This document shows, piece after piece, positions 16,748-46,956 of a stretch of DNA of 64,000 bases. The notes under the pieces are model-generated. The model searched no databases. It was not told where the DNA came from and was given only the letters and a program-made list of their open reading frames with translations. Position 1 is the first letter of the stretch, and each line of letters opens with the position of its first letter. The translations under genes and the position numbers were made by a program. Origin of the DNA: Selaginella tamariscina (Eukaryota > Streptophyta > Lycopodiopsida > Selaginellales > Selaginellaceae); the NCBI GenBank assembly GCA_003024785.1, contig PUQB01000029.1, forward strand, positions 596,530 to 660,529, given 5' to 3'.

Positions 16748-17300
16748 GTCCAAAGTATAATGTAGGTTTTTTTCTCTTAGTAAATCCGCCATTCCCAAAA
16801 ATTAAAAATGAAAAAAAAGATTAAATGAGCTTTATTTTTGTTAATAAATAAAGATATTGAATAAATTATATATATATAATATGCATAAGACATATAGTTA
16901 ATTAATGTCCTTGATAATTACCATTGTGTATTTGTACACACACATATATAGAAAGCGGCTATGCTGAATGTAAGTATTGTGTACACATATACGTTTTTAT
17001 GTAACTTTGTATATAATATTAATGAGTTATATACAATAAAAACAAATTAAATGAATATAATACATTAAAAACTATATATATGTATAAATAGAAATAGAAA
17101 CTTATAAATGAATGATCTACAATATATATAATATAAAACATTAGTGTACTATATTATATTATGTATAAAGTTAGAATCCAGTATATTATATGTAAAGTGT
17201 TAATTAGCAACTCTTTATTTTTAAAATATAGTGAGAATGTTAAAGAAAATGCGTTTTTAAAATGCATTTATATAGATTAAATTTGTATGTGTTATATAAT
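16748..17300. other. AT-rich intergenic stretch
   Basis: AT-rich DNA with TATA-type runs and no ORF, between the Crinkler-type gene and the first recognisable piece of the metallothionein/tRNA array. From about 17,160 it begins to resemble array unit sequence. Confidence 0.5.
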
Positions 17301-17679
17301 ATTACACTATATAATTTTCATAATATTAATTTTGTGCATAAAAATACAAGATACTTAATTATACACGCTACAGTATAATCTAAATACATACATATCTTAT
17401 ATTGTTGCATCCATACATATATCTCTAAACAAAAGTGCGTTTCATACGCAATTGTATATAGAGAGCACATATATACTCTAGTTAAGTACTTTTGTGTGTG
17501 CTTGTGTGCTCGCGCGTATATGTGTGTATTATGTCGTATATGTATCATATTATATATGTAATAAATAATCACGAATTCTACTCATGGTGTGTAAAAGATA
17601 GACACAACACAACACACGTAAAAGATAAGAAACTGTAATTTTGCAAGACTTTGGATTGTTATATATAAATACAACACAG

Positions 17680-18230
17680 ACATGTACAAGATCTGTGATA
17701 TATATATACACCTTTGTGCCGCACATGCACAAGTGCACACGCACACACGCACCAAACGAGATGGAAAGCTACTTGTAAGGCGTGTGAGAGAGAGAGATTG
17801 CGAAGATTGTATGCTTCATAACCTCCTCTCTCAATCATATTTAATTAACTTAATTAATTTAATAATTTCATATGCGTTGTGATCTACTCGGAACTTCACG
17901 TTAACAAGGATAAAGTAATATTTGTCTAACCAATTACGGGTTTTACGGGTCTGCATAAAGAAATTAAAGAAATTAGGAATAATCGTGTCCTACGCTTAAA
18001 AGATTAATGTCGGGGCTTATAAAGTTCCTTCTTAATTGGTGTTCTCGGTAGTTGACAAGGATATACACACCATTTATTTAAACTTATAAGACGATGTTTA
18101 AGCAAATGCATAAATAATATATTTGTTGCATATGTGTGTAATAAAAAACGCTGTTTCGTACTTGAGGTTTATTCTAACGTATAAGAATTTATAATGTTCA
18201 TAATTATATGAATAAGAAACATTTACACTT
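17680..18230 (+). repeat. Left arm of imperfect inverted repeat in the array
   Basis: It carries the metallothionein 3' flank (GATGGAAAGCTACTTGTAAG, 17,760-17,779) and the following unit sequence but no exons. Its reverse complement appears at about 19,140-19,850, for example TGTACAAGATCTGTGATATA here against TATCACAGATCTTGTACATG there. The orientation switch marks one end of an inversion in the array. Confidence 0.7.
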
Positions 18231-18885
18231 GCCAAAATATGTACTGTTCAAATTTGCATTGTTAAATTTAATTGATATTTGAAAGAAAATGAAGTCTCAA
18301 TACGGTTGTTACGGTAGTAAAATTCTACGTACTCAAGAACATAAATAATACACTTCAATTTATATTTCATACTTGATAATGTTTTATATTATATATCATT
18401 CATGTATAAGTATCTGTTTCACTTATATATATGCGTGTGTGTGTGTGTGTGTGTGTGTACAAATATACAGTTGGTAATTATCAAGTACATTAATATAGTA
18501 TATGTCTTATGCATATATTTATAATACGATACATATACGACATAATACACACATATGTGCGGTCTCACACACAAGTATTATATATGTACGTAACAGTTTT
18601 CGTAAATATATACGTAAGATATGCATATTTAGATTCTGTATTTTGATTGTAAATGTAAATATTATATAACACATAAAAACTATAGAGTTTAATATTATAT
18701 AACACATTAAAAATTATTTTAAATTACGAAGAAATGTATTTTCATTTAAAATAAAAATTATTTTAACAAAAGTATCATTTTAATTATAATTATTGGGCGA
18801 AAACTATATATATGTATCGACTGAAAATGTTGCTATGGACAGAAAACACACACAAACACATTAGAACAATCAATTAAACTATTAT

Positions 18886-18951
18886 TGTCAACAGTGGGTT
18901 TGAACCTGCACCCGGGCAAGCCATTTCAAGTCTATCTCCGGACACGTTGAC
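18886..18951 (-). pseudogene. tRNA-Ser(UGA)-like, D arm deleted
   Basis: Minus-strand relative of tRNA-Ser with the anticodon-loop sequence CTTGAAAT preserved. The stretch that normally forms the D arm (about 14 nt) is missing and the variable/T region is altered. Not expected to be functional. Confidence 0.7.
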
Positions 18952-19139
18952 ATAAATAATGAAGTCATCTGTTCATCAAACGTAGTATATGTAAATTGCA
19001 TGTAAATTTCTTTCTTTTTTTTAAACTACAAAATATAGATACTTATGATATACGAACTATGTTATTGAGTTCGAATCGTTGAGACATCATTTTCTTTCGG
19101 TATTAATTAAATTTAATAATGCAAATTGGAACAGTATAT

Positions 19140-19850: not shown

Positions 19851-19894
19851 ATACATAGATATACACATTAAATTCTTTATTCAAAGATAAACGA

Positions 19895-20195
19895 CAGCTA
19901 CAAGTTTTCCCACACTTACAAAATGCCTCCCCTTATGCAATCACCTTAGCACAAGTACACACCTCACAATTGCAAATTACATGTTACTGTGTGTGTGTGT
20001 GTGTGTGTGCATGTGTTAGAGAGAGAGAGTCTAAGCTACTTTGTAAAGCAGTAGTCCCAGTCACTGTTGCTGCTTCAACAGAAGAATAATGTATACAAAA
20101 GAAATAAATCGCTAATAACACACATGCACACACTTGCAGTTGGATCCACAAGGGCAAGGACTTCCTTTAATATGATGCACCTCACACATATCCAT
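19895..20195 (-). pseudogene. Metallothionein copy B (variant N-terminus)
   Basis: Exon 1 (20,195-20,134) reads MDMCEVHHIKGSPCPCGSNC, then the usual donor region. The first half of the normal exon (MATVPVVGATCGCTAACPC) is replaced by MDMCEVHHIK. Exon 2 (about 19,985-19,895) keeps the C-N-C-E-V-C-T-C cluster but has a frame change and a stop (GCATAA) before the last cysteine cluster. The nearest relatives are the copies at 32,721 and 36,205. It lies inside the inverted part of the array. Confidence 0.7.
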
Positions 20196-20406
20196 ATAAA
20201 TATGAATGAACCTTTCACGAACACACATACAAACAAAAATACTGCAGAATATATTTCAGCAGTAAAAAAAAAAAGGACCAAATGTATAAACGAATAATGT
20301 GTCTATATAGAAATGATTCCCTTTTACATATATTTATACGTAATTATTTACTCAAAACATAAACCACTACCATACACGAGTAAACATGCTTCTAGCCGTG
20401 TCTATA

Positions 20407-20700
20407 GGCTTGGGGCAAGTGCACGTCTCGCAACTGCAGCTCTTCCCACACTTACAAAATGGCTCTCATATGCACTCACCTTTGCACACACAATTGGCAC
20501 CACACTCACAAAAAATCCCCTCGTGTCCTGTGTGTGCGTGAGAGTGTGTGTGTGTGTGAGAGAGAGAATCACATCTATGAAAGGATCGATTCTTAATAAA
20601 AATTCACACGCAGCACGCACGCAAACACATACTTGCAGTTGGATCCACAACTTCCATAAGGGCAAGCAGCAGTGCAGCCACAAGTAGCTCCAACTACTGG
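20407..20700 (-). pseudogene. Metallothionein copy A
   Basis: Minus-strand exon 1 (about 20,700-20,631) keeps VVGATCGCTAACP but has lost the start codon and first codons, and CPCGSPCPCG is shortened. Exon 2 (about 20,530-20,407) lacks several codons of the middle cysteine cluster. Its promoter block (TATTTGGCATGGGCAAGAGC on the plus strand) follows at about 20,780-20,880. Confidence 0.75.
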
Positions 20701-21450: not shown

Positions 21451-22005
21451 CTGCTCTTTATATATGTATATATGTATGTGTACAAATACACAGCTGGTAA
21501 TTATCAATAAATTATATGTCTTATATTTAGTATACGACGTAATACACACATATGTGCGCTATCGCTTGCACACACACACACACACACACTGAGTGGAGTA
21601 TATATGTGCTTTTATATATAATTGCGTGTGAAACACACTTTTATATAGAGATATATGTATGAATGTAACAACTTTTTGTAAATATGTATTTTTAGATTCT
21701 GTATTTAGTAAATGTACGGTATATAATTAGGGTTTATTATTTATTAAACCACAAAAAATTTATAACACAAAAATTATTTAAATTACGAAGAAATGCATGT
21801 TTGATGTGTATTTTCTATTTTTAATTATAATTATAACTTTAGTTATGTCACACATTGGTGTGCGAAAACTATATATATGTATCTATTGACGTTCTTTATC
21901 AATCAATGGATCCGACACAACCACATATGTTTCTACTGAAAACGTTTCCGTTCTTTATCATCGATGGACAGAAACACACATTGGAACAATCAATTAAACT
22001 ATTAT

Positions 22006-22073
22006 CGTCAACAGCAGGGTTCGAACCTGCGCGGGCAAGCGCAATAGATTTCAAGTCTATGGACAAGTTGACG
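22006..22073 (-). pseudogene. tRNA-Ser(UGA)-like, D arm deleted
   Basis: The T arm is perfect (GCAGGTTCGAACCCTGC) and the anticodon stem-loop ATAGACTTGAAATCTAT is intact, as are the acceptor-stem ends. The D-arm segment (TCCGAGTGGTTAAGGAG in full copies) is almost completely missing. It shares this kind of deletion with the copy at 18,886. Confidence 0.75.
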
Positions 22074-22969: not shown

Positions 22970-23119
22970 AGGAATGGACATGAGGGATTTTTGGGAGTGT
23001 GGTGCCAATTCAACTGTGATGTGTACACCTGTGCAAAGGTGACTGCATCTGGGGAGCCATTTTGTAAGTGTGGGAAGACTTGCAGTTGTTGCACTTGCCC
23101 CAAGCCTAGGCGCGGCTAG
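22970..23119 (+). pseudogene. Metallothionein copy C, exon 2 only
   Basis: Exon 2 with a start-proximal frame change (GGGATTTTTGGGAG) and part of the third cysteine cluster missing (CAGTTGTTGCACTTGCCCC). Exon 1 is deleted: the promoter sequence TAGCTTGATATATAATAGAG (to about 22,886) joins directly to the intron sequence AATGTAAGTTAGTATCTTAA. Confidence 0.75.
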
Positions 23120-25690: not shown

Positions 25691-25928
25691 ATTTTATTAT
25701 AAAAATTTGATGTTTGGAATAATAATGTGATATATGTATAATACATTAGTTAATGCAAACTGAAGGCCGCTAATATCTGCTTTACTGGGTTTAACCTGGG
25801 TTTAACACTTGGCAGCTCTTGCCCATGCCAAATAAGCTTCTTCATTGCATGTAGCTTGATATATAATAGAGTGAGCAGCAACACAAGTTCATCACTAAAT
25901 TTTATATTAATCTTGTTTATTAGAAAAG

Positions 25929-26313
25929 ATGGCAACTGTTCCTGTAGTGGGAGCTACTTCTGGGTGCACTGCTGCTTGCCCCTGTGGATCCAGCTGCAAG
26001 TAAGTGTGTATGTGTGTGTGTGTCAAATCTTATTAAGAATTTCATAGATGTGATTCTTCTTCTGTCGGAGCATCAACAGTGACCGGGACTACTTCTGAAC
26101 AAATGTAAGTTCCTATCTTAAGTTCTCTCTCTCACGCACGTACATACACCACGTGCAGGAGTGGACATGAGGGGATTTTTGTGAGTGTGGTGCCAATTGC
26201 AACTGTGATGTGTGCACCTGTGCAAAGGTGACTGCATCTGGGAGCCATTTTGTAAGTGTGGGAAGACTTGCAGTTGTGAGACTTGCACTTGCCCCAAGCC
26301 TAGGCGCGGCTAG
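25929..26313 (+). pseudogene. Metallothionein copy D
   Basis: Exon 1 (25,929-25,999) reads MATVPVVGATSGCTAACPCG then SSC; it lacks one Cys-Pro-Cys-Gly repeat and has Cys-to-Ser at residue 11. Exon 2 (26,159-26,313) has two single-base losses compared with the intact copy (in the T run after GAGGGGA, and in TCTGGGAGCC), which break the frame. The promoter block at 25,761-25,870 is well preserved. Confidence 0.8.
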
Positions 26314-26924
26314 AAGCATGTGTTCTTTGTGTATAGTAGTGGTATATGTTTTGAGTAGATAAGTTTATTGTATTGTACACGAGAGAATCATCACACAACC
26401 TTTCTGCAACTTTACACACACATATATACGCGCACGCACACACGCACCCACACAAGTTCGGAAAGCTACTTGCAAGGTGTGTGTGTGAGAGAGAGGTGTG
26501 CGAAGTATACTTTCACAACCTTCTCTTCTTAATCATGCTGAATTAACTTAATTAATTTAGTAATTCTATATGGAATTCTATGTTAACATATAAAACTATT
26601 TTTAATTATGTGGGCTGTATACTGGAGGTGTCCTGAATTTGATTTATAATATATTGATTGCTCAGAACTTCATTTTGTGTAAAGCAATTTGTAAGGATAA
26701 TGTAAATTATAAGTAAATACTTGATAAAAACTTATAAAATGATATTAAACATATTACAAACTATATACTTGTGGTACATATAAATTCATATTTATTATAT
26801 GTCTGTAATTAAAAACACCGTTTTGTACTTCTGGTTTCAACAAATAAGATTTTATCAAATATATACTGTTGATAATTAATCAATAAGAATTATTTACTTT
26901 ATATATAATATATATATATATATA

Positions 26925-27126
26925 TATTAAATACCTAATACAGTACGTACCGTAATATACGCATGTGTATATACGCACATGCGTAGTGACACATGGGTGG
27001 TGATCTGGCCCCCATGTGTCAGCGCCACGTGTCGCATGTGTGCCACGTGGCAGGAGACCTCCTGTATATAAGCAGGGTTTTTGTAAACTAAATATCAGAT
27101 TTTCATTTAATATATCTGCTCTTTCA
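26925..27126 (+). repeat. 5' LTR
   Basis: It matches the 3' LTR with only a few differences after the first 25 bases. It contains two perfect inverted repeats, ACGCATGTG/CACATGCGT and GACACATGGG/CCCATGTGTC, two G-box-type motifs (GCCACGTGTC and GCCACGTGGC) and a TATA box (CTGTATATAAGCAGGG, about 27,062-27,077). It ends in CTTTCA; the following TTGGTGGAGAAGTTGGG is the candidate primer-binding site. Confidence 0.8.
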
Positions 27127-27179
27127 TTGGTGGAGAAGTTGGGTATCCTTTCTTCCGCATTTTCTTTTTTCTTGTTTCC

Positions 27180-28259
27180 ATGACAATGAACATGGAGACG
27201 GCTTTTAGCATTATTGCTACTGCTATTGATGCACAAACTAAGTTGTTGGAGCGCTTCGTTGAGGGTCCGTCCTCCTCTTCCCCGTCTGAGCCTCATGCCG
27301 GGGGATCTGCTTCTAGTACTCCTTCATCTTCTTCACAGGCCACAAATCCGAGGGTTCGACCCCGATCTTTTTGTGGTGATCCGGGAGATGATGTATACCA
27401 CTGGTTTGATCATTTCCAAGTCATTGTTCGTTACCATGGTTGGGATGAGGCCCGTGCTCTCAGAGAATTCCCTACATGTTTGGAAGGCCCTGCGCTCAAG
27501 TGGTATAATGGATTGGCTGCGGAGATTCAAGCCAATAGTAATCGGTTAACGGAATGTCTCAAACGTACGTTTGGCAAAGTTGAGGATTCAGATGATGCTT
27601 TCCAACAACTGCATGCGATACGACAACATCCTGGTGAGTCTGTTATGCGGTTAGTATTAGGTTCGGGGATTTAGTTCGGCGTGCATATCCTAACATGCCT
27701 GAGCCTATTAAGCTCGGTATGTTATGGCCAACTATGCGACCCGAACTTGTTCGATTCGTTCGGGCTCTTCGTCCTACCACATTGGAGGAAGCTTTTGCAC
27801 TAGCTCAACGTTTTGAGTTGGTGCCTGGTGAGGGCCGTGTTCCCCTTGGGTTACCTGCTCCTCTTGTTCAGCGTGCTGATCCAATGGAGGTTGATGCTGC
27901 TGCATATGTGCCCGCACGACAAGCCTTTCGTGGTCGACCTCGGGGCCCACCCCGTAGACCACCTCCACGAAATCGTCCTGCACCTGCTCCAGTTCCTGCC
28001 CGTGGTGGTCAAAATCCACGGATTCGTGACAGGAGGAATCGGAACAATGCAGGTCAACCCAATCAAGTTCACTGCTGGGCCTGTTGGGCACCTGGACATA
28101 CTTGGCGGGCATGCGATGTGTATCCTGATTGGCGTCCACCCACCAGGCTGGCGACATATGTTCCGGGATGGTGTACCTGTGGCGGCCATTATGTCTGATG
28201 ATGAGCTTCCAGATGATGACGCTTCTCTTGCGGGTGGATCTGTTGCGGAAAACCAGTAA
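27180..28259 (+). pseudogene. Gypsy gag, frame-broken
   Basis: Segment 27,180-27,674 has the retrotransposon gag core (RSFCGDPGDDVYHWFDHFQV). After a stop and frame change near 27,674 the frame 27,695-28,198 continues to a proline/arginine-rich tail and a CCHC knuckle (CWACWAPGHTWRAC). Gag would form the particle and bind the RNA. Gag, protease and pol occupy different frames with several breaks, more than one programmed frameshift would need. Confidence 0.7.
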
Positions 28260-28750
28260 TCGTACGGGCGACGGAGGGATCCCGTGCGATGGAAACTCCA
28301 CCTCCATGTTTTTTCGCTATGCATATCAAGGGTTGCAAGTTCCACCAAATCATCCAGTTTTCACATTTTCTGCACGAGTGAATGATGTTTCAGTCACAGT
28401 ACTTGTGGATACAGGATCTAGTGTCTTCCATAACTACTTCTCTGGCGCATCGGTGCTCATTACCCTTGAGACGAGCAGATAAGGTCTTGCACATTTTATA
28501 TGGTAATGGGCAGTCTCGTGCAGTATCACAGTACACCACTTCGACTACTAGTTATGGGTGCCAACTGTAAGTTTCCCTCTGGGTCTCTTAGGGTTGTCCC
28601 TTCCCAGGTCTTTGACATCATTCTGGGATGTGATTGGTTAAAGCAGTCGAAAGGTACATGTGATTTTTCACTCTCTCCTCCTGTATTACGCTTGGAGTCT
28701 GTGTCTTTGCAGTCTGTTCCTTTACGTCCAGAGAAGTTTGTTGCTGTTTG
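28260..28750 (+). pseudogene. Gypsy aspartic protease region
   Basis: VSVTVLVDTGSS at about 28,390-28,430 is the retropepsin active site (D-T-G). FDIILGCDWL at about 28,610-28,640 is the conserved C-terminal protease motif of gypsy elements, in a different frame. Confidence 0.7.
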
Positions 28751-31711
28751 TATCACGCATACAGCTCCTTTGATTCCGGTCTTGGGTGGTGTTCATCTCA
28801 ACAGGTTCAAATGCCGGATCCGTCACCTGAGTGTCGAGCACACTGCATCGAACAACTTAAGAAACAGTATGCAAGTTTGTTCAAATTTGATCTGTCCCAA
28901 GGTGCACGTGTGAAGACTCGACACTGTATACCCACCGGCAATGCAAAGCCTTTCAAAGTCCCGGTTCGACGCAGGTCACCAAAGGAGTTATCAGCCATGC
29001 GAACAGCTGTTACTGATATGATTGGTAAACGAGTGTGTCGTCCGTCACGGAGTCCATGGGCATGTGAACCTCATTTGGTTCCCAAGCCTGATGGATCTCT
29101 CCGATTTTGTGTGGATTACCGACCTCTTAACGATGTTACCATCAAAGATGTCTATCCACTTCCGAACTCTGCCGATCTATTAGATCGTTTGGGTCAGAGT
29201 CGATGGTTTACTAAGTTGGATTTGGCATCAGGATATTGGCAGGTTCCTATGACTGAGGAGGATATTCCAAAAACGGCCTTCCGGACACCATTTGGTCTTT
29301 ACGAGTTTTTGGTCATGCCTTTTGGATTGACTTCAGCTCCTGCCACCTTTCAACGCATGATGGATGAGCTTCTTTCCGATATGCCTGATATCACTGCCGA
29401 TTTTATCGACGATGTGCTCATTCATGGGTCTGGTTCTTGGGAGGATCACATTCGTGATGTACGGCGCGTTCTTGATCGATTTCGAGAAGTTGGCCTGAAG
29501 TTGAAACTTGAAAAGTGTGTGTTTGGTTCGACCGACACCACTTACTTGGGTTACCGTATATCTCGAGAGGGTTTACAGGTGGATCCAATGAAGTTGCGAG
29601 CTGTTCGAGAGTTCCTCGTCCCGTACAGTACAGGAAGTCCACGTTTCTTGGGCACGGTGCAGTACTTGGGTCGATTCATCGATCATCTCACTGATCGAAC
29701 TGCCCCTCTTCGGGAGTTAGTTCGTCCACAGGTATCTTTCAGGTGGACTCGCAGGTGTCAGCAGGCATTTGACCAGTTAAAAGAGTTCCTGACAACTCCA
29801 CCATTGCTTCAATACCCAGATTTTACTCGTCCGTTCATTTTACGAGTAGATGCCTCAGATGTTGGTATTGGTGGTGTATTGATGCAAACTGATGCTGTGG
29901 ATTCTTCAATTCGACACCCGGTGGCTTACATTAGTCGAGTACTCACGCCGGCTGAGCGGAATTATTCCACTACTGAAAAAGAATGCCTTGCTGCTGTTTG
30001 GGGTTTTGAACGACTTCATGCCTACTTACATGGGAGTGAAACGCTTTTGGAGTGTGATCATGCTGCTGTCACTTCCTTATTAAAACGGAAGAATTTAGTG
30101 GGTCGCGTAGCCAGATGGGCATTACGTCTCCAGGTATATAACTTTAAGGTGGTGCACAGGCCTGGGCGAACAATGGTGGATGCGGATGCACTTTCTCGAG
30201 CACCCCTCTCCGATTCCACTTTGCCTGCTCATGCAGTAGCTGCAGCATTCGGTTTGATACAAGCCCCTCAGGTATTCGATGCCGACTTACCATCCTTGGA
30301 ACAGTGGCAGGATGCTCAAAAACATGAACCATGGACGAGGCAATTACGCGATGCGTTTGCAATTCCGTCTTCCGAACCTCGGTTTCGACAATATCATGCT
30401 CAGTTTCGACTTCAGGATGGTTTATTGTATTTTATTGGGACAAATCCAGAGGACAGATGGCGTTTGGCTGTACCCTCTACATATGTTCCACACCTTCTTC
30501 GAGCATATCATGATTCACCTATTGTTGGAGGTCATCTTGGTCATCAACGAGTGTTGGAGAAGCTGCGCCGATCATTTTATTGGCCCAGCATGCGTGGTGA
30601 TGTGATCAGGTATATTCAAAGTTGTCCCACTTGTCAAACTCGGAATTCCTCTACGACTCGGGCCATGGGAGTGTTGGAATCCATCAATGTCTCTCGCCCT
30701 TTTGAGTTAATTGCAGTGGATTTAATGGGACCTTTTCCACGTTCTTCTCAAGGTAACCAGTACATCATTGTTGTATCTGATTATTTAACTCGATGGGTAG
30801 AGGTTGGTGCTCTTCCGGATGCAACTGCCATGTCAACAGCTTTGTTTCTGTTCGATAATGTGGTTTTGCAGCATTCTTGTCCAGAGCGGATGTTATCAGA
30901 CAATGGCCCCGCTTTCATTGCAGAGGTATTCCGAGTGTTGTGTGAGAGGTTAGGGGTAAAACATTCATTTGCCTCTCCGTATCATCCACAAACTGATGGT
31001 TTGGTGGAGCGATTGAATCGGACCTTCAAGGGTATGATCTCGAAGTATGTGAACTTCAATCACACGGACTGGGATTGGTATTTGCGATGTTTGAGATTTG
31101 CTTATGTAACAGGCATTCAGAGTTCGATTGGTATCTCTCCATTCAAGGCATTGTATGGATATGATCCTAAGTTGCCTAGTGAATTGGGGTTATCATCGAA
31201 TCTGCCACGTGCCGAGGATGCAAAGATGTGGGCTCGACATTTGGATGCTGTTTTGCCTCTTCTGCGTGCAGAGTCTGCTGAACATCTTGGTCGAGCTCAA
31301 ATGCGGCAGCAATCTTCTTACAATGCACGACATCAAATTCCACCAGATTTTGCTGACGGTGACTTAGTCCTGGTACGTTTTCCCAAGCTGACTGCACCTG
31401 GGCTTGCAACTGGTTTATTACACAAGTGGCTTGGTCCCTACCGAGTACTCCGAAAGGTTGGTCCTCAGGTATATCAAGTAAAGTTGGTGGGATCTCATGA
31501 GGTTGAGATAGTTCACGTGGTTCGAATGAAACGGTTTGTCGTTCGAGACTCGTTGAGTACATTTGGTCATACCTTAGATGGCCCAGCTCACACGGATCCA
31601 GGACCATCAGATCCATCACCATCTACACACCGCAGAGGGGAGGATAGTGTAAGATACTATATTAGCAGTAACGTACCGTATATACGCATGTGTATATACG
31701 CACATGCGTAG
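28748..31711 (+). CDS. Gypsy pol: RT, RNase H, integrase
   Basis: Open for 987 codons. The RT has FCVDYRPLND, KLDLASGYWQVPM, FLVMPFGLTSAPATFQ and the catalytic FIDD (about residue 219). RNase H begins ILRVDASDVGIGGVL (about residue 367). The integrase has the zinc-binding H-x(n)-H-C-C region ending CPTCQTRN (about residues 595-633), then the DDE residues in AVDLMGPFP, LSDNGPAF and TDGLVERLNR (about residues 658, 717 and 754). The end resembles the GPYRVLRKVG domain. The stop lies about 60 bp inside the 3' LTR. Since gag is broken, pol expression from this copy is doubtful. The upstream start is not defined because pol is normally part of a polyprotein. Confidence 0.85.
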   Translation: MYHAYSSFDSGLGWCSSQQVQMPDPSPECRAHCIEQLKKQYASLFKFDLSQGARVKTRHCIPTGNAKPFKVPVRRRSPKELSAMRTAVTDMIGKRVCRPSRSPWACEPHLVPKPDGSLRFCVDYRPLNDVTIKDVYPLPNSADLLDRLGQSRWFTKLDLASGYWQVPMTEEDIPKTAFRTPFGLYEFLVMPFGLTSAPATFQRMMDELLSDMPDITADFIDDVLIHGSGSWEDHIRDVRRVLDRFREVGLKLKLEKCVFGSTDTTYLGYRISREGLQVDPMKLRAVREFLVPYSTGSPRFLGTVQYLGRFIDHLTDRTAPLRELVRPQVSFRWTRRCQQAFDQLKEFLTTPPLLQYPDFTRPFILRVDASDVGIGGVLMQTDAVDSSIRHPVAYISRVLTPAERNYSTTEKECLAAVWGFERLHAYLHGSETLLECDHAAVTSLLKRKNLVGRVARWALRLQVYNFKVVHRPGRTMVDADALSRAPLSDSTLPAHAVAAAFGLIQAPQVFDADLPSLEQWQDAQKHEPWTRQLRDAFAIPSSEPRFRQYHAQFRLQDGLLYFIGTNPEDRWRLAVPSTYVPHLLRAYHDSPIVGGHLGHQRVLEKLRRSFYWPSMRGDVIRYIQSCPTCQTRNSSTTRAMGVLESINVSRPFELIAVDLMGPFPRSSQGNQYIIVVSDYLTRWVEVGALPDATAMSTALFLFDNVVLQHSCPERMLSDNGPAFIAEVFRVLCERLGVKHSFASPYHPQTDGLVERLNRTFKGMISKYVNFNHTDWDWYLRCLRFAYVTGIQSSIGISPFKALYGYDPKLPSELGLSSNLPRAEDAKMWARHLDAVLPLLRAESAEHLGRAQMRQQSSYNARHQIPPDFADGDLVLVRFPKLTAPGLATGLLHKWLGPYRVLRKVGPQVYQVKLVGSHEVEIVHVVRMKRFVVRDSLSTFGHTLDGPAHTDPGPSDPSPSTHRRGEDSVRYYISSNVPYIRMCIYAHA

Positions 31712-31851
31712 TGACACATGGGTGGTGATCTGGCCCCCATGTGTCAGCGCCACGTGTCGCATGTGTGCCACGTGGCAGGAGACCTCCTGTATATAAGCAG
31801 GGTTTTGTGTAAACTAATCATCAGATTTTCATTTAATATATCTGCTCTTCA
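31648..31851 (+). repeat. 3' LTR
   Basis: It begins TGTAAGATACTATATTAGCA directly after the purine-rich tract and ends CTCTTCA. The inner 170 bp are almost identical to the 5' LTR, so the insertion is young. Confidence 0.85.
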
Positions 31852-32509
31852 ATCTATATATATATTTATTATATATATTATTGTTAATATATATACTGTT
31901 CAAATTTGCATAAATTCAATTAATACTGAAACAAATACGGTTGTTACGATGGTAACCACTTAACTTTATACATAATACACTTCAATTTATATGCATACGT
32001 GAAGGTTCTATTTATATAATGTATATCATTCCTTTATAAGTTTCTGTTCTACTTATACCTATATGTAGTTTTAATGTATATATTTATTTAGTTGTGTGTA
32101 TACATATATAAGCTATATAAAAACGTAACGATACCCAAGTGTATATGTGTACACAATACTTAAACCAAGGGCAGAGCCGCTCTCTCTATATGTATGGGTA
32201 TATATGTGTGTGTGTACAAATACACAATTGGTAATTATCAAGTACATTAATTAACAACATGTCTTATGCATATATTTATTACATAATACACACATGTGCG
32301 CACACACACACACACAAGTACTTCACTAGATATATATGTGCTCTCAATAAACAATTGCGTGTGGAACACACTTTTGTTTATAGATGTAACAATATTTGTA
32401 AATATATAAGATATATTGCATATTTAGATTATAATGTACCGCATATAATTATCTTGTATCTTTAGGCACAAAATTAATAGTATATAACATAAAATTAAAT
32501 ATGAACTAT

Positions 32510-32537
32510 TGTCAACAGCAAGATTCGAGCCTGCGCA
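32510..32537 (-). pseudogene. tRNA-Ser fragment (3' third)
   Basis: Only the acceptor 3' strand and T arm remain (GTCAACAGCAAGATTCGAGC on the plus strand). It joins abruptly to metallothionein 3' UTR-type sequence (TAGTAGTGGTTTATGTTTTG), so a deletion fused two neighbouring units here. Confidence 0.7.
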
Positions 32538-32720
32538 GCTATAGTAGTGGTTTATGTTTTGAGTTAATAATTATGTATAATATATGTACAAGGGAATCAT
32601 ATCTATATACATGAAGTTAAACACATTATTCAGTTATATATTTGGGTCTTTTCGCACTGCTTAAGTATCTCTGCTGGCTTTTTATGTGTATGTGTGTGTT
32701 TGTGAAAGGTTCATATTTAT

Positions 32721-32890
32721 ATGGATATGTGTGAGGTGCATCATATTAAAGAAAGTCCTTGCCCTTGTGGATCCAACTGCAAGTAAGTGTGTGTGTATGA
32801 TGTGTGTTTGTTGTAAATTTTATTAACGATTTATTTCTTTTGTAAACGTGATTCTTCTGTTGGAGCAGCAACAGTGACTAGGACTACTGC
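32721..32890 (+). pseudogene. Metallothionein copy E (variant exon 1, no exon 2)
   Basis: Exon 1 (32,721-32,782) is open: MDMCEVHHIKESPCPCGSNC, with a good donor (AAGTAAGTG). The intron begins normally, but similarity stops near 32,890 and no exon 2 follows. Together with the copy at 20,195 it defines a sub-family with a different N-terminus and a different upstream region (GTGAAAGGTTCATATTTATA). Confidence 0.7.
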
Positions 32891-33428
32891 TTTACACTGT
32901 TTTATAACAAATAAGATTTTTGTCAAAATACAAGTTTAATTAATACAAAAAGAAAATGAAGTCTCTGTTACGGAACTCAAGGACATAATGTAGTACACTT
33001 TAATTTATATTTCGTACGTGAAAATGTTTATATTATATATATTGTATATCATATATGCATAAGTATTTGCTCCACTTATATATATAATGTATGTATATTA
33101 TATTATATTTATTTAATTTGTTCCTAAAGGCATACGTGTATAACTCACTAATATTCATATATGTAATTATATCAAAACTTAAGTATACCCGTGTATATTG
33201 TACACAATATTTAAACCAAGGACATCATGCTGCTCTTTATATATGTATGGGTATGTGTATATGTATGTGTGTACAAACACGCAACTGGTAATTATCAAAG
33301 TACATTAATAAATTACATATCTTATGCATATATGTATTAATATGATATATATACAGCATAATACGCACGTATCTGCGCTCTTCGCACACACAAGTACTTA
33401 AGTGGATGTGAAACATACTTATATATAT

Positions 33429-33818: not shown

Positions 33819-34273
33819 AGGAATGTTTAAAATTTATTCATGGGCAAGTGTACATCAAAACATCCCAACGGATTTTATATAAACCTACTTTTATTCCCAT
33901 CCCCTAAACCCAATCATTGTTGAGTGTCCGAAGAAAAGTGATCAGTTCAACCTTTACGGATTAGTCTCTCACTCGGATATTGTCTCGAGCTTCGATCTCC
34001 AAACCACAACTCACAACACACCAAAGCAAAAAGCAAACAAACAAACGAGGCCAAACCAATTTGTAGCAGATGCCCAAAGTAGCTCCATGACAACCACTAT
34101 AACATACCACATACACATCCACCAGATCAAACATTAAATGCCCAAGGATATGCCCAATACGCATCAGAATGACTACTTATTGCAAACACACCAAACCTTT
34201 AAACAAGAACCATCGTTGCAATTACCTTATTAGAAGATACCTATTCAACCTTAAAGACGTAGTCGTTGAGACA
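33812..34273. mobile_element. Solo-LTR-like insertion at a tRNA-Ser copy
   Basis: The array unit is interrupted exactly at the 5' end of the tRNA-like copy by about 460 bp of unrelated, less AT-rich sequence beginning TGTTGAAGGAATGTTTAAAA and ending near TTGAGACA. Unit sequence (CATAACAGATTATATGTAAA) resumes afterwards. The TG...CA ends suggest a solo LTR. A sequence starting TGTTAAGGAAG and also containing TTTATTCATGG lies at 8,416. Confidence 0.45.
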
Positions 34274-36204: not shown

Positions 36205-36575
36205 ATGCAACTGTTCCTGTAGTTTGAGCTACTTGTGAAGTCCTTGCCCTTGTGGATCCAACTGCAAGTAAGTGTGTGCGTGTGTGATGTGTGTGTGTGT
36301 GTGTTACAAATTTTATTAACGATTTATTTCATTTATAGACGTGATTATTCTTCTGTTAGAGCAGCAACAGTGACTGAGACTACTGCTTTACAAACGTAAG
36401 TTACTAGCTTAGTACTCTCTTCTCTCTCTCACACACACACACGCACGCACACATGTGACATGCAATTTGCAATTGCGAGGTGTGTACTTGTGCTAAGGGG
36501 TCTGCATAAGGGGAGCCATTTTGTTTGTAACTGTGGGAAGACTTGTAGCTGTCTTGTCCCCATTTGTATTTGAAT
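36205..36575 (+). pseudogene. Metallothionein copy F
   Basis: Exon 1 begins ATGCAACTG, one G short of ATGGCAACTG, and also carries an internal deletion and a TGA (GTTTGAGCT), so it is dead. Exon 2 (about 36,450-36,575) keeps the CNCEVCTCA cluster, then a stop, and ends in TAGCTGTCTTGTCCCC rather than the usual PKPRRG end. Polyadenylation-like AATAAA lies near 36,573. Confidence 0.75.
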
Positions 36576-37391
36576 AAAGAATTTACTGTGTGTATATAAT
36601 ACACATGTACAAGAGAATCACCTGTGTGTATATATACACACACATGCCTTTCTGCAACTTTACACACACATACATACACGCACACGCGCACACACACAAG
36701 TTCAAAAGAGATGGAAAGCTACTTGTAAGGTGTGTGTTGTGATTGTGTGCGAAGGGTTTATACTTTGTATAGATATATGAGAGGTGCATCATCATGTTAC
36801 AATTTACAACCTTTTCTTTCTTTTCTTTTGGTTTTTGATAATTGTAAATTAAGTATGCGGGGGATTGTATACTGGAGGTGTCCCTGTGTCATGATGTTAA
36901 TCACGGTTGAACACAATGTTTTAATTACATATTATATAATACACAACTAAATCTATACAATGTTCTAATATGTGTTTCTGTTCATTGATTAATAACTAAT
37001 AAGATTATAATTAAAAATGGTGTTTCCGTTAAAATTATTTTTTATATTTAAAATAAAATACACATCAACATACAAGATAATCATTTTTATGTGTTATATA
37101 ATATTAATTTTGTGCATCAAACATACAAGATACTTAATTATGTACGTTACATTTATAATTAAAATATATATATCTTATGTATACATTTACAAAACTCTAT
37201 AGTGTTTCACACGTAATTATATATCGTATATATTCTTATATGTAGTAGATAAAAATAAAATATATACCTCATATCCCTTACATATAGTGGATAAAAAAGT
37301 AAATATTTGATTATACGTTGTGTATTATATAATATGTAAATGAGAACATTGTAAATATTAAGTTGTGTAAATATTACCAAAAAACTAAAGT

Positions 37392-37471
37392 CGTCAACAG
37401 CAGGGTTCGAACCTGCGGGGCAAGCCCAATAGATTTCAGTCTATCTCCTTAACCACTCGGACATGTTGACG
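37392..37471 (-). pseudogene. tRNA-Ser(UGA)-like
   Basis: It has a perfect T loop (TTCGAAC) but lacks one base in the anticodon loop (ACTGAAATCT instead of ACTTGAAATCT), and the variable arm is shortened. Confidence 0.65.
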
Positions 37472-38343
37472 TAATCATCTGAAGCGCTCGTCACAACAGA
37501 TTATATGTAAACTATATATAAAATATAAAAAATATAAAAAATCATAATTATGTTTTTCTTTATAAACTACAAAATATAATGAGAATGTTAAAAAAAATCC
37601 GTTATATTTATATCTTGCGTATTCGCGATTCTAAGGCTTCAATAAAATTCAGATAATTAGTTAAAATCGCTGGGTCAACTCACACAGCAATAGTTTAAAT
37701 ATTCAGATGAAAAGAGAAAGACTGAGTGAGCTTTATTTCTTAATTTCTAACATTCTATGTTAAATAAATAAAGATTATAAATATATTACGTTAGAATCAG
37801 AATAAAATCAATATAATTTGGTCATAGTCAATTAGGTATAGACAACTTTTATGTGTAGCTTCATTAAAGTTAATAAAACAAAAAATACTTGAGTTAATAT
37901 CTAAATATAAAATATACAATTATAATACATATAAAATAAAATACTTGATATTAAATTTTATTATAAATTTGATGCGTTGAAATCACATAATAATATGTGG
38001 TTCGAAATATATTATAGTAGAATTCCTTGATAAATAATAAATATTCACGAATGGGTGACACAAACAACATGCCACACGCACACGCACACAACACATAAAA
38101 GATATGAAACTATTATTTAACAAACTTTGGATTGACAGAAAATAATGATATATATATATATAATACACGAGTTTATAGCCGCTAATATCTGGGGTTTAAC
38201 CTGGGTTTAACACTTGGGCAGCTCTTGCCCATGCCAAATAAGCTTCTCCATTGCGTGTAGCTTGATATATAATATAGTGAGGAGGAACAAGTTCATCATT
38301 AAATTTTATATTGGTTTCGCTCTATCTTGTTTAATTAAAAGAA

Positions 38344-38660
38344 ATGGCAACTGTTCCTGTAGTTGAAGCTACTTGTGGCTGCACTGCTGCTTGCCCCTGT
38401 GGAAGTCCTTGCCCTTGTGGATCAATTGCAAGTAAGTGCGTATGTGTGTGTGTGTGTGTGTCAAATCTTATTAAGAATTTATGATGTGATTCTTATTCTA
38501 AACAGTGACTGGGACTACTTCTGAACAAATGTAAGTTCCTATCTTAAGTACTCTCTCTCTCTCTCTCAAAACACACACACACACACACATTCTCTCTCTC
38601 ACGCACACACGCACATGTGCAGGAGCGAACATGAAGGGATTTTTTTGTGTGGTGCACAAC
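38344..38660 (+). pseudogene. Metallothionein copy G
   Basis: Exon 1 is open for 27 codons (MATVPVVEATCGCTAACPCG, then SPCPCGS) but has lost one base before the donor (GGATCAATTGC). Exon 2 is cut off after about 30 bp and joins 3' flank sequence (ACAACCTCCTCTC), so both later cysteine clusters are lost. The promoter block at 38,175-38,290 is intact. Confidence 0.75.
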
Positions 38661-42311: not shown

Positions 42312-42393
42312 CGTCAACAGCAGGGTTCAAACCTGAGCAGGCAAGCCCAGTAGATTTCAAGTCTATCTCCTTAACCGCTCTGACATGTTGACG
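42312..42393 (-). pseudogene. tRNA-Ser(UGA)-like, best full-length copy
   Basis: 82 bases with a perfect 7-bp acceptor stem (GTCAACA/TGTTGAC), anticodon TGA and all arms present. Flaws are one mismatch in the anticodon stem, one in the T stem and TTTGAAC in the T loop. It may be a marginal gene, but it is more likely a pseudogene. Confidence 0.6.
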
Positions 42394-42437
42394 ACATAGA
42401 CAATTAAAAAAGTATTAATCTAATATTTATATGTAAA

Positions 42438-43084
42438 AAAAATGTTATAATGACATAATGATTTACTAAAATGATCTAACACGTTAGCAATAATTAGTTG
42501 TGTAGTGGATTTTTGCCACGCAGTGAATATACCTCTCCTATATATATATATATATAAATAAAGAATCGTTGTCACCATCGGCTACTTCACTGTATATATA
42601 GGAATAAGCAAGCCAGAGAGGAGGAAAAACGCACTGTACACAATTAAACAAACTCTCTTGTGACGTTACAGCCAGCTCAAAAAAGTTTTATTTATTGTTG
42701 GCCAGCTGGGGGCAAGTCCACCGGTTGTGGCCAGGTTGATTGCACCTTTGCACAACCGTTGTCTACACTCCTGTGGTGTCAGAACTTGTTGGGGCAGTGG
42801 CGTTTGCAATGGCTGGGACGGCAAATGGGATAGCACTTGGGATTGCACCTGGGACGACGGTTGCCATCCAAGCTGTACCAATGCAAGCAATGGCAGTAGC
42901 AAGTGTCGCGCTTCCTCAGCCCTAGCCCCGTCCTCCACACCAATGTGGAGCCTCTGCTTGTGTGACTGCTGGACCTCTTGTTCTGTGTACTCAAACCCAG
43001 AGGGGTCTCGCAAGGTGGAGTGATGGTGTGATGCGTGGTCGCTCAATGACAGTGCTGACGTGTTAGGTCATTATAACATTTCCC
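42438..43084. mobile_element. MULE-like DNA transposon with TIRs
   Basis: A block of about 647 bp interrupts the array unit. Its ends are inverted: AATGTTATAATGAC at the left (from 42,441) and GTCATTATAACATT at the right (to 43,080), with a second inverted block CTAACACGTTAGCA / TGCTGACGTGTTAG further in. TATGTAAA flanks both sides (42,430-42,437 and 43,085-43,092), an 8-bp target duplication that could be 9 bp with one mismatch. The size suggests a non-autonomous hAT or Mutator-like element. The interior from about 42,660 is GC-richer than the array. Confidence 0.7.
42666..43046 (-). CDS. 126-codon ORF inside the TIR element, unknown
   Basis: Begins MSDHASHHHSTLRDPSGFEY and fills most of the element's interior. 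Gln/Leu/Pro-rich in the middle; no family recognised. It may be a captured host gene fragment, as in Pack-MULEs, or chance coding in GC-rich DNA: a 98-codon ORF also exists on the opposite strand. No splice sites or membrane segments are apparent. Confidence 0.3.
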   Translation of the reverse strand: MSDHASHHHSTLRDPSGFEYTEQEVQQSHKQRLHIGVEDGARAEEARHLLLPLLALVQLGWQPSSQVQSQVLSHLPSQPLQTPLPQQVLTPQECRQRLCKGAINLATTGGLAPSWPTINKTFLSWL

Positions 43085-43404: not shown

Positions 43405-43589
43405 ATATCTGGAGGCCGTTGATATCTACTTTACTTAGGTTTAACCTGGGTTTAACACTTGGCAGCTCCTGCCCATGCCAAATAAGCTTCTCCATTGCAT
43501 GTAGCCTGATATATAAAAGGGTGAGGAACAACACAAGGTTCATCTTTAATTTTTATATGGTTTTGCTCTATCTTGTTTAATTAAAAGAA
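43405..43589 (+). promoter_or_regulatory. Promoter of the intact metallothionein copy
   Basis: Conserved in at least six units: GGCCGTTGATATCT, a doubled TTTAACCTGGGTTTAAC, TGGCAGCTCCTGCCCATGCC followed by AAATAAGC, and a TATA box (TATATAAAA, 43,510-43,518) about 70 bp before the start codon. The dead copies have TATATAATAG here instead. No canonical animal-type metal-response element is seen. Confidence 0.6.
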
Positions 43590-44007
43590 ATGGCAACTGT
43601 TCATGTAGTTGGAGCTACTTGTGGCTGCACTGCTGCTTGCCCCTGTGGAAGTCCTTGCCCCTGTGGATCCAACTGCAAGTAAGTGTGTGGTGTGTGTGTG
43701 TAATCTTATTAAGAATTTCATAGATGTGATCTTCTTCTGTCGGAGCATCAACAGTGACCGGGAACTACTTCTGAACAAATGTAAGTTCCTAAGTTTTCTC
43801 TCTCACACGCACACTCTCTCTCACGCACGTACATACACACACATGTGCAGGAGTGGACATGAGGGGATTTTTTGTGAGTGTGGTGCCAATTGCAACTGTG
43901 ATGTGTGCACCTGTGCAAAGGTGACTGCATCTGGAGAGCCATTTTGTAAGTGTGGGAAGACTTGCAGTTGTGAGATTTGCACTTGCCCCAAGCCTAGACG
44001 CGGCTAA
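43590..44007 (+). CDS. Metallothionein, Ec-like (type 4-like), intact
   Basis: A cysteine-rich protein that should bind Zn, Cu or Cd in the cytosol. Two exons: 43,590-43,678 and 43,851-44,007, with a GT-AG intron of 172 bp and a clean phase (AA|G). The 81-residue product has 19 Cys in three clusters: CGCTAACPCGSPCPCGSNC, CECGANCNCDVCTC and CKCGKTCSCEICTC, separated by short linkers (KSGHEGIF and AKVTASGEPF), ending PKPRRG. Three clusters with a His just before the second resemble the plant Ec (type 4) class more than the two-cluster types 1-3. This is the only copy in the array with start, splice sites, frame and stop all intact. The 3' UTR has AATAAG signals (about 44,050). The intron keeps a well-conserved TGACTGGGACTACTTCTGAA-like stretch in all copies; reading it as an exon brings a stop in most copies. 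Confidence 0.85.
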
Positions 44008-45430
44008 AAGCATGTGTTCTTTGTGTATAATAGTGGTATATGTTATGAGTAAATAAGTTTATTGTATTGTAACGTAGAAGTACATCACACATATGTACAA
44101 GAGAATCACACATATTTTTCTGCAACTTTACACACACACACGCACACACACACACGAGTTCAAAGGAGATGCAAGGTGTGCGTGTGTGTGAGAGAGATTG
44201 TGTGGGAAGGGTTTATACTTTCACAACCTCTTCTCTTAATCATCCTCAATTGATTTGGTAATTAATGCATATCATTTATATAAAGTATTCTTGCCTTTTG
44301 CTTTTTGATAATTGCCAATTAATCCTGTGGGGGGTCGCTCATGTGTCACTATGTTAATCATGGTTGAAATAATTGGATTATGTGTGAAACGATTGAGGAT
44401 GATATAAACTTATAAAATGATATTTAAACATACGTACCAAACTATATACTTGTGGGTACATGTATATGTATATTTTACTATATGTTTGTAATATAAAACA
44501 CTGTTTCGTACTTATGGTTTCGATATATTCTAACAAATAAGATTTTGTCAAAATATGTATTACATCATTTAATTACATAATATTAAATATATACTCTTCT
44601 CATTGTTAAATTTAATTAATATTGAAAGAAATTGAAGTTTCAAAACGGTTGTGTTTCAAACTCAAGATCCCTCACAAACTTTGTACATAATATAGATAAT
44701 GTTTATATTTATCATTCATGTATAAGTATCTATTCCACTTTTATATATATATATATTATATATATATATATTATATATATAGTTATAATATATATAGTTT
44801 TAATGTATTTTATCTATTTAATTTGTTCCTAAAAAAATACGTGTATAACTCACTCATATTCATATATATAATTATATAAAAACATAAGTATACCCGTGTA
44901 CACAATACTTAAACCAAGGACATCATCTATGGATATGTATGTGTACAAATCACTTTTAATATATACAGAAGATATGTATATTTAAAATTAATGTACCGTA
45001 TATAATTAATATATTCTATTTTATGCACAAAATTAATTTATGTAACACATAAAAATTTATATAAAGTGGAATATTATATAACACATAAAAATTACTTAAA
45101 TTATGAATGTTGATGTGTATTTTCATTTTATATAGAAAAAAGTTATTTAGCTAAAACACAATTTTAATTATAATTATAACTTATTTAGTTATGTCACACA
45201 TTGATGTGTGAGAACTATATACGTATATGTATATACTGAAAACGTTTCTTTATCAGGACATAAACACACACAAACACATCTTAGAACATGTGTGTATAGT
45301 GGATAAAAAATTAAATATTTGATTATAAGTTGTGTACTATATAATATGTATGTGTATACTGGATAAAATTTAAATATTTGATTGCAAGTTGTGTGTATAT
45401 AAATATGTAAATGCCGATATAACAATATTA

Positions 45431-45496
45431 TCGTTGGACAACAGGGTTTGGGACAAGTTCAAGTCTTTATCTCCATAATCACTCTGACATGTTGAA
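45431..45496 (-). pseudogene. tRNA-Ser-like, last and most degraded copy
   Basis: Only the TTCAAGTC anticodon region and a GACATGTT-type 5' end remain. Weak unit similarity continues to about 45,970, where the array ends. Confidence 0.5.
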
Positions 45497-46956
45497 GTCT
45501 ATAAAGTCATCGTATATCATATGTAAATTGTTAATTAGCAAATCTTTATTATATAAAAACCACAATTATGATTATTTTTTTTATAAATTACAAAATATAG
45601 TGAGAGTGGTAAAGAGAAATGCGTTATATTTATTTATTTATATATTGTTTCGGTGTTGTTCAGAATTAGATGTTTCAATCAAATTCAGATAATTAATTAA
45701 AACTGCTCACCTAGATTATAGATAGTTGTTTTTCCAAATATTAAAAATGTTAAAAAAGATTAAGTTAGCGTTATTTCTTAATTTTTAACACTTTATGTTA
45801 AATAAATAAAAATATTGGAAAAATATATATACAGTTAAAATCAGAATAAAAATCAATATAAATACTCATAAGTTATAGCTTTCATGTGTACACATGCATA
45901 TAAATGTAACTTCATTAAAATTATTAAAATAAAAATACTTGAATTAATAATTAAAATTTGATTATAATAATTTATCTGTTGGAATCTAAAACAAATGCTT
46001 TTCATATGTAAATATTTATTTTTCTAGAAACAACACTCATTTGGCAATGTAGATGTGATTTTCAAATTTTATTTTATTTGTTTGTGTAAGTAATGAATCT
46101 GCACTTTCGTAATTAATTCCATAAAGACAACAATTTAACATATATATTTATAAGAAACAAATATGTTTTATTTGACTAATGTAAATTAAAATTAATAAGG
46201 GTTTATAATATTTAAAATACTTAAATTAAATATATATATCTAATAAATAATAAATATTTATTATTTGATGATGTAGATGTGCTTTTTAAATTTTATTTTT
46301 ATTATTATTTTGTAAGTAACAAATCTATACTTTCACAATTCATTCAATAAAAATAGCATTTCATAGAGTAGTAATATATATTTATAAGAATAAAATACGT
46401 TTTATTGATTAATGTTAATTACAATTAATAGGGATTTAAATTAATTAAACTAATTATATATATTTAATAAATCTTATTCTTGGGTTATAAGAATAACATT
46501 TTGTATCTGTATGAAGGATAAATTTGTGTTAAAATTAAATAATTTATATTAAATAACAATATTAATATATATTTAAGCTAGTAATATATATATGGTCAAC
46601 AATCTATTAAGGTATATCAAATAGATATCATGCTAATAATTAATGACTTTTTATCTTCTTTATTTTTATGTATGTATGTGAGTATCTACACACACACACA
46701 TATATATGGGGTAGAGTTAAAGCATATAACACTTCTTTTTTTTAATTAAAAATTTCTTACATTTATAAAGTAATTAGCCTGAGCACAAAGATTATGAATT
46801 ATTGCAGTTCGTAATCATAAACATATACCTTTGTAAAATTAAATTTATTTATATATATAATCATAAATCTGTTGATATAAATTTTAAAGAAAAAGCTCCA
46901 AGTAAGAAATCTTTTACAAACACACACACACACCAAATGCTATAAAAGTTTTATTA

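What the first reader, a model, noticed from the sequence alone, without database searches (positions are those of the whole stretch)
17300..45700. Tandem array that pairs a metallothionein with a tRNA-Ser(UGA) in each unit
Nine metallothionein copies and nine tRNA-Ser(UGA)-like copies alternate with a spacing of about 2.1 kb. The tRNA reads opposite to the metallothionein in the standard units. Tandem metallothionein arrays are known as gene-dosage adaptations to metals. I know of no plant array whose unit also contains a tRNA-Ser gene. The tRNA could have been a passenger, a boundary element or the source of the amplification. Protein shown directly; function inferred.
Basis: partly seen in the sequence, partly recalled or inferred. 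Interest (0 to 1): 0.85.

Follow-up and report, generated by a model that had tools for sequence, protein, structure and literature searches.

The report
Metallothionein–tRNA-Ser array hit by LINEs
In a plant genome that is probably the resurrection spikemoss Selaginella tamariscina, a metallothionein gene and a serine-tRNA gene were duplicated together many times and mostly decayed, and some of the tRNA copies became landing sites for LINE retrotransposons that often insert at the start of 5S rRNA and tRNA genes.

Summary
The window holds nine metallothionein-like and nine tRNA-Ser(UGA)-like sites (fragments counted) that share one ancestral unit. Clean alternation exists only at 35.5-45.5 kb; the left half is inverted, scrambled and interrupted by transposons. 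The array continues upstream, and contig C1337, probably the other haplotype, carries it collinearly. Most copies are decayed. Few metallothioneins are intact (three exons, plant PEC/type-4 family, dN/dS about 0.17). One tRNA, intact on C1337, equals tRNA-Ser(UGA) genes at unrelated loci. A SINE origin is not supported. The tRNA looks like a passenger; a simple gene-dosage reading is not supported.

The more novel result lies at the junctions. LINE 3' ends abut nucleotide 2 of tRNA-Ser at array sites. Three divergent LINE types share that 3' terminus. Of 95 flanks read genome-wide, 46 run into 5S rRNA (38 at exactly the same offset), 12 into a tRNA-like repeat, 3 into tRNA genes, 2 into tRNA-Ser heads and 32 into other sequence. 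I read this as an L1-like LINE lineage that prefers the starts of Pol III genes. My searches of open-access papers found none reported in plants.

The parts
43589..44007 (+). metallothionein copy; exons 1 and 3 open, exon 2 frame-shifted here (open on C1337, where exon 3 is shifted instead)
25928..26316 (+). metallothionein copy, three exons; two single-base gaps in exon 3 here, open on C1337
40549..40921 (+). metallothionein pseudogene (start lost, exon 3 partly deleted)
38343..38645 (+). metallothionein pseudogene (most of exon 3 lost)
36207..36552 (+). metallothionein pseudogene
32753..32896 (+). metallothionein exon 1 fragment
22977..23118 (+). metallothionein exon 3 without exon 1
20393..20697 (-). 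inverted metallothionein pseudogene
19894..20165 (-). inverted metallothionein pseudogene
37391..37471 (-). tRNA-Ser copy, 50.2 bits; two 1-base gaps here, intact (60.8 bits) on C1337
35543..35624 (-). tRNA-Ser(UGA) copy, 42.4 bits
42310..42392 (-). tRNA-Ser copy, 38.6 bits
33735..33819 (-). tRNA-Ser copy, 29.2 bits, with a LINE 3' end at its nucleotide 2
33820..34255 (-). truncated LINE (type D) inserted at the tRNA 5' end; limits read by eye from the empty-site comparison
22004..22072 (-). tRNA-Ser copy, 29.2 bits
39763..39831 (-). degenerate tRNA-Ser copy
45458..45496 (-). tRNA-Ser 5' half remnant
18884..18939 (-). degenerate tRNA-Ser remnant
32508..32538 (-). tRNA-Ser 3' fragment
1..8360 (-). 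LINE A (extends 433 bases upstream of the window, where its 3' end abuts tRNA-Ser C604:596047-596096); RNase H, APE-like endonuclease and RT pieces; 5' limit inferred
8361..8403 (-). two 22-nt 5S rRNA heads in tandem between LINE A and the tRNA-Ser head
8404..8419 (-). tRNA-Ser head, read as a target-site duplicate
8420..10662 (-). LINE B, 3' end at 8420; zf-RVT domain; 5' limit not determined
26941..31849 (+). LTR retrotransposon in the array (LTRs 97.3% alike), absent from C1337 at this place; described only

Best explanation
Array: a stretch holding a plant PEC-type metallothionein gene and, on the other strand, an ordinary nuclear tRNA-Ser(UGA) gene was duplicated in tandem many times (unequal exchange, inferred). 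Both genes were kept by selection for a time; then most units decayed and were broken up by inversions, an LTR element and LINEs. A few metallothioneins and one or a few array tRNAs look intact today. The tRNA is a passenger (inferred). LINEs: the tRNA copies are also targets. A lineage of L1-like LINEs (APE-like endonuclease, RT, RNase H) shares the 3' terminus CCATGAATAAA-N9-TTCC and inserts, by target-primed reverse transcription (inferred), preferentially at the 5' end of Pol III genes: chiefly 5S rRNA, also nucleotide 2 of tRNA-Ser(UGA) and other tRNA genes, often building stacks of LINEs. Shown: shared unit, decay, intact alleles, fixed junctions, empty and filled sites. Inferred: duplication mechanism, passenger role, TPRT, how the target is recognised.
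For: Shared unit; collinear second contig. Metallothionein: PEC family score 44.0, 46.3 and 39.1 bits against a cut-off of 31.8 for three copies; dN 0.05, dS 0.29 between the two open copies. tRNA: mean identity 0.69 in the tRNA bin against about 0.50 in the adjacent bins over 66 pairs; C1337 copy identical to tRNAs on C527 and C471. LINE: same terminus at tRNA-Ser nucleotide 2 at C604:596096, window 33819, C604:546.66 kb, C556:174872 and C1017:25062; empty sites at 37.4 kb, its C1337 allele and C604:592.6 kb. Of 95 flanks of three LINE types, 46 show 5S rRNA, 38 at exactly 16 nt after the box; shuffles gave 2 hits in 9,500; Rfam confirms six 5S and five tRNA matches in 20 loci given.
Against: 32 of 95 flanks are neither 5S nor tRNA-like, so the target is not exclusive; 12 more are a tRNA-like repeat that Rfam did not recognise in the three tested (L090, L121, L135). 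In 39 of the 46 5S cases only the head follows, then other sequence; I read these as target duplicates inside LINE stacks, but part of the head could travel with the element. Several flanks are duplicates of one locus. At 33.7 kb no target duplication was seen. LINE A's 5' end carries 5S heads although its 3' end lies on tRNA-Ser; this is not explained in detail. Endonuclease and RT scores are below Pfam's cut-offs (24.2 against 24.5; 20.3 against 29.6). Single-base gaps differ between contigs in both directions, so intactness calls are uncertain.
Confidence: 0.78

Rival explanations
1. Gene-dosage adaptation: the array is kept for metallothionein output and the tRNA serves as boundary or promoter element in each unit.
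For: Tandem metallothionein units exist, and the open copies are under purifying selection.
Against: Most copies have lost exons, starts or frames; most array tRNAs score low or fail; metallothionein exons occur without a tRNA nearby.
Confidence: 0.1
2. The tRNA-Ser-like copies belong to a tRNA-derived SINE.
For: tRNA-Ser-like matches are dispersed: 30 of 40 scored lie on 25 other contigs; nine of 20 read share long flanks with each other.
Against: No dispersed locus of the 20 shares a body with the array; flank sharing in the group of nine extends at least 300-400 nt on both sides for most pairs; 19 of 20 are tRNA-Ser(UGA) by ARAGORN.
Confidence: 0.03
3. The LINEs carry the tRNA and 5S heads as part of their 3' ends and spread them, instead of targeting them.
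For: 39 of 46 5S cases show the head only; LINE A has 5S heads at its 5' end.
Against: Array units without a LINE have the same tRNA in the same flank; different things follow the same terminus (5S, tRNA-Ser, tRNA-Gly, others); whole 5S bodies follow in some.
Confidence: 0.1
4. Assembly artefact: the repeated units come from misassembly.
For: PacBio/Falcon assembly of 300.73 Mb for an estimated 150-Mb genome in the likely species (PMC8558194, passage); indels look error-prone.
Against: Two contigs show the same order of units, and units within one contig differ by some 20-35%.
Confidence: 0.03

Closest known systems
Plant PEC (type 4) metallothioneins, Pfam PF02068
   Same: Cys-rich clusters; Pfam score above cut-off
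   Different: three-exon gene in a decayed tandem array with a tRNA gene in the unit
Plant tRNA gene clusters (Arabidopsis tRNA-Ser/Tyr, PMC12308677; tRNA-Cys, PMC10701932; abstract starts seen)
   Same: tandem tRNA-containing units
   Different: here the unit also holds a protein gene and is about 2 kb
Dictyostelid tRNA-targeted non-LTR elements TRE5/TRE3 and relatives (PMC5006619, abstract and passages)
   Same: APE-type LINEs that choose tRNA genes; one newly described element prefers about 4 bp upstream of tRNA genes
   Different: TREs insert about 50 bp upstream or 100 bp downstream; here the junction is inside tRNA-Ser and 5S genes and 5S dominates
tRNA-specific NeSL-1_TV and planarian LIN15_SM, LIN25_SM (PMC4640811, passages)
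   Same: LINEs specific for a tRNA gene
   Different: they belong with RLE-type NeSL relatives; this lineage has an L1-like APE endonuclease
Mutsu LINEs of 5S rRNA genes (recalled; the name appears in the listing)
   Same: 5S rRNA target (recalled)
   Different: animal elements of the Tx1 group (recalled); no relationship tested
Helenus-1_SMo of Selaginella moellendorffii (PMC10886601, passages)
   Same: tRNA-related mobile sequence in the same genus
   Different: non-autonomous LTR element with 120-bp LTRs and 85-bp interior; not looked for systematically here

Membership tests
Plant PEC (type 4) metallothionein | Pfam PF02068 score above the curated cut-off | tested here: met
   39.1, 44.0 and 46.3 bits against 31.8 for 3 of 3 copies given
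Plant PEC (type 4) metallothionein | metal binding | not testable with these tools
   no experiment
Nuclear tRNA-Ser(UGA) gene | tRNA fold and UGA anticodon | tested here: met
   35.5-kb copy, C604:592.55 kb and C1337:91.75 kb; other array copies fail or score low
Nuclear tRNA-Ser(UGA) gene | transcribed and used | not testable with these tools
   no RNA data
tRNA-derived SINE | shared tRNA-unrelated body at dispersed copies | tested here: not met
   no array flank matches any of 20 dispersed loci at E <= 1e-6
L1-like LINE | APE endonuclease and RT | tested here: inconclusive
   Exo_endo_phos 24.2 bits (cut-off 24.5), RVT_1 20.3 (29.6), zf-RVT 35.0 (27.5, LINE B), RVT_3 71.4 (21.6); endonuclease closest to L1 in the PDB
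L1-like LINE | placement in the L1 clade by RT tree | not tested
   no LINE reference set on hand
Target-specific LINE | same 3' junction in a multicopy gene in many copies | tested here: met
   46 of 95 flanks are 5S, 38 at one offset; but 32 of 95 are other sequence
Target-specific LINE | target-site duplication at both ends of one copy | tested here: inconclusive
   heads of 16-17 nt inside LINE stacks; no clear duplication at 33.7 kb
Dictyostelid TRE elements | about 50 bp upstream or 100 bp downstream of tRNA genes | tested here: not met
   junctions at tRNA-Ser nucleotide 2 and within 5S; some 17-22 nt upstream of a tRNA at L094, L097, L099

The most novel reading that the evidence does not exclude
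A land-plant LINE lineage with an L1-like endonuclease and an archaeal-like RNase H recognises the start region of RNA polymerase III genes in general (5S, tRNA-Ser, tRNA-Gly and others), perhaps at a similar distance from the transcription start, and lives as LINE stacks in 5S and tRNA genes. It would be the first Pol III-gene-targeted APE-type LINE known in plants.
Probability: 0.5. Interest if true: 0.75.

Novelty: new variant of a known kind. Interest (0 to 1): 0.6.

Why it matters
The array is a readable natural case of a protein gene and a tRNA gene amplified together and then decaying. The LINE lineage matters more: strict target choice is well described for LINEs of animals, protists and amoebae, but a plant LINE that enters 5S rRNA and tRNA genes at a fixed point would be new to me and would be another independent route to Pol III genes as safe harbour. 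Divergent subfamilies that share one 3' terminus and one target make the recognition step testable.

Tried and rejected
SINE origin of the tRNA copies: rejected on flanks. LINE carrying the tRNA along: made unlikely by empty sites, not excluded for the 5S heads. Helenus-type LTRs: considered after passages of PMC10886601; not searched for. Gene-dosage reading: not supported, most copies are broken. The first Pfam test used a peptide that mixed letters of two copies; it was repeated with the products. In one search one of seven gene models (C604:540.5 kb) was cut wrongly by my pattern and says nothing about that copy. Junction counts by pattern and a genome-wide 5S census did not complete.

Searches behind 'none found': LINE targeting; metallothionein, tRNA arrays; open-access PMC library only, Repbase not searched. 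Passages seen: PMC10886601, PMC4640811, PMC5006619, PMC3747384, PMC12477314, PMC8558194, PMC7329468. Other papers: listing and start of abstract only.
Full report
WHERE IT IS. The window is contig C604:596530-660529 of an unnamed assembly of 300,702,823 bases in 1,391 contigs. A table in PMC8558194 (passage seen) lists Selaginella tamariscina with an assembly of 300.73 Mb, an estimated genome of 150 Mb, and PacBio/Falcon. The size match makes this species likely; it is not proven.

OBSERVATION. Nine tRNA-Ser-like and nine metallothionein (MT)-like sites lie in the window if fragments are counted, and they share a unit. The clean pattern, MT on plus and tRNA on minus, is limited to 35.5-45.5 kb. 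To the left the array is partly inverted and split by an LTR element. Upstream the same contig carries more copies, MT pieces back to C604:529 kb. Contig C1337:79-98 kb carries the same units in the same order. It lacks the LTR element at 26.94-31.85 kb and the insertion at 42.44-43.08 kb, and has a 98.7% similar copy of the LTR element elsewhere, in the other orientation. With an estimated 150-Mb genome and a 300-Mb assembly, C1337 is most likely the other haplotype; a segmental duplicate is not excluded.

METALLOTHIONEIN. The gene has three exons. Of seven copies modelled, two are open throughout: C1337:85.2 kb (allele of the 26.0-kb copy) and C604:530.9 kb; one model (C604:540.5 kb) was cut wrongly and does not count. 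The two products and the exon 1+3 product of the 43.6-kb copy pass Pfam's PEC score. Between the two open copies dN is 0.05 and dS 0.29. The other seven window copies have lost exons or starts or carry stops. Single-base differences between contigs go both ways: 26.0 kb is shifted here and open on C1337; exon 3 of 43.6 kb is open here and shifted there, and exon 2 the reverse. This suggests assembly errors on top of real decay. A protein search of the genome gave 32 matches, 28 of them on C604, C1337 and C1281. C1281 has MT exons and no tRNA match in the 10 kb read.

tRNA. Rfam scores in the window are 50.2, 42.4, 38.6, 29.2 and 29.2 bits; the other four sites miss the threshold. The C1337 allele of the 37.4-kb copy scores 60.8 and equals the tRNAs at C527:507.3 kb and C471:804.8 kb, whose flanks are unrelated. 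The upstream copy at C604:592.55 kb scores 53.1 and is also called by ARAGORN. Over 66 pairs of 12 array copies (the C1337 allele among them) the tRNA bin averages 0.69 identity and the adjacent bins 0.49 and 0.50; among the seven better copies pairs range from 0.74 to 0.98. So the tRNA outlived its surroundings. A genome search with the tRNA scored 40 of 57 candidates: 10 on C604 and C1337 and 30 on 25 other contigs. I read 20 of these 30: ARAGORN calls tRNA-Ser(UGA) in 19. Nine of the 20 share long flanks with each other; none shares flanks with the array at E <= 1e-6, except that L055 and L063 share the LINE terminus with the 33.7-kb copy. This speaks against a SINE and for dispersed tRNA genes, one of which was caught in the MT unit.

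LINE JUNCTIONS. Several tRNA-Ser copies are preceded, at nucleotide 2, by CCATGAATAAA-N9-TTCC: C604:596096, window 33819, C604:546.66 kb, C556:174872 and C1017:25062. In the window this is the 3' end of LINE A, which fills about 1-8360 on the minus strand. In reading order its frames are RNase H, frames without a Pfam match, APE-like endonuclease, RT. The endonuclease is closest to L1 ORF2p among solved structures; the RNase H matches prokaryotic RNases H, one of them ST0753, and 'archaeal-like' is my reading, not a tree. Endonuclease and RT scores lie below Pfam's cut-offs. Behind LINE A's inferred 5' end stand two 22-nt 5S rRNA heads, a tRNA-Ser head, and the 3' end of a second LINE (B): two LINEs stacked at one array tRNA. 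At 33.7 kb a truncated third type (D) lies between the unit's flank and the tRNA, while the 37.4-kb copy, its C1337 allele and C604:592.6 kb show the empty site; no target duplicate was seen there. A and B are 65% alike over 680 nt near the 3' end; D shares only about the last 25 nt with A.

GENOME-WIDE TEST. Searches with the three 3' ends had 57 (B), 204 (A) and 262 (D) first-look candidates; 40 each were scored. I fetched 36, 39 and 20 flanks. Not fetched: the window's own copy in each search, the C1337 alleles of B and D, two B loci already held (L055, L063), and 18 further D matches. Of the 95 flanks: 46 5S rRNA (20 B, 14 A, 12 D), 12 a tRNA-like repeat (3 B, 9 A), 3 tRNA genes by ARAGORN (L099; L108 and L115, the last two with the same flank), 2 tRNA-Ser heads (L126, L133), 32 other (12 B, 12 A, 8 D). 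Of 43 5S heads found by pattern, 38 begin exactly 16 nt after the CATGAATAAA box; three more 5S cases were found by their body, one of them weakly (L109). Only seven of the 46 show 5S body; the rest show the head and then something else. Shuffled flanks (single-letter shuffles) gave 2 hits in 9,500. Rfam on 20 chosen loci gave 11 matches: 5S in L073, L082, L083, L093, L134, L138 (model start 9 or 10 in four of them) and tRNA in L094, L099, L105, L108, L115, the one in L105 facing the other way; nine loci gave none, L109 among them. Some flanks are duplicates of one locus (for example L116/L117, L122/L123, L148/L149/L160), so independent events are fewer than the counts.

HOW IT WORKS. Array: co-duplication of MT and tRNA, selection for a time, then decay; the tRNA is best read as a passenger. 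LINEs: nicking near the start of a Pol III gene and copying in from the 3' end (inferred from LINE biology). Whether the target is read as sequence (many junctions begin TCA) or through Pol III factors is open.

NOVELTY. Tandem MT genes, tRNA clusters and target-specific LINEs are known kinds. I know of no plant array with this unit, and searches listed none. Searches showed tRNA-targeted LINEs in amoebae, a NeSL element and planarians, none in plants. The library is open-access PMC only and Repbase was not searched, so this is weak evidence of absence.

Noticed in passing
window 42436-43083: Insertion of about 650 bases with inverted-repeat ends, absent from C1337, where the flanking matches overlap by 8 bases; looks like a hAT-type DNA transposon that differs between the two contigs.
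   Followed up: partly
L057, L060, L061, L062, L065, L067, L069, L070, L071: Nine dispersed tRNA-Ser copies lie in a larger repeat with related flanks on both sides; two (L065, L067) have an extra copy of the tRNA 3' half just downstream.
   Followed up: no
L074, L090, L101, L111-L113, L121, L124, L127, L132, L135, L136: A tRNA-like repeat follows LINE 3' ends in 12 of 95 flanks; three tested with Rfam gave no match.
   Followed up: partly
contigs C1223 and C867 of G000: Many 3' ends of LINE types A, B and D lie on these two short contigs, as if they were LINE stacks with 5S heads between them.
   Followed up: no
C1337:101114-106060: A copy of the window's LTR element, 98.7% alike and inverted, at a place where the window has none; two sites differ between the contigs.
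   Followed up: partly
window 8361-8403: 5S rRNA heads at the 5' end of LINE A although its 3' end lies on tRNA-Ser; possibly carried over from an earlier 5S site.
   Followed up: partly
window 13087-13755: Minus-strand frame with an alpha/beta hydrolase match, 43.6 bits.
   Followed up: no
window 14857-16747: Two long plus-strand frames (246 and 237 aa) without a Pfam match at E <= 0.01.
   Followed up: no
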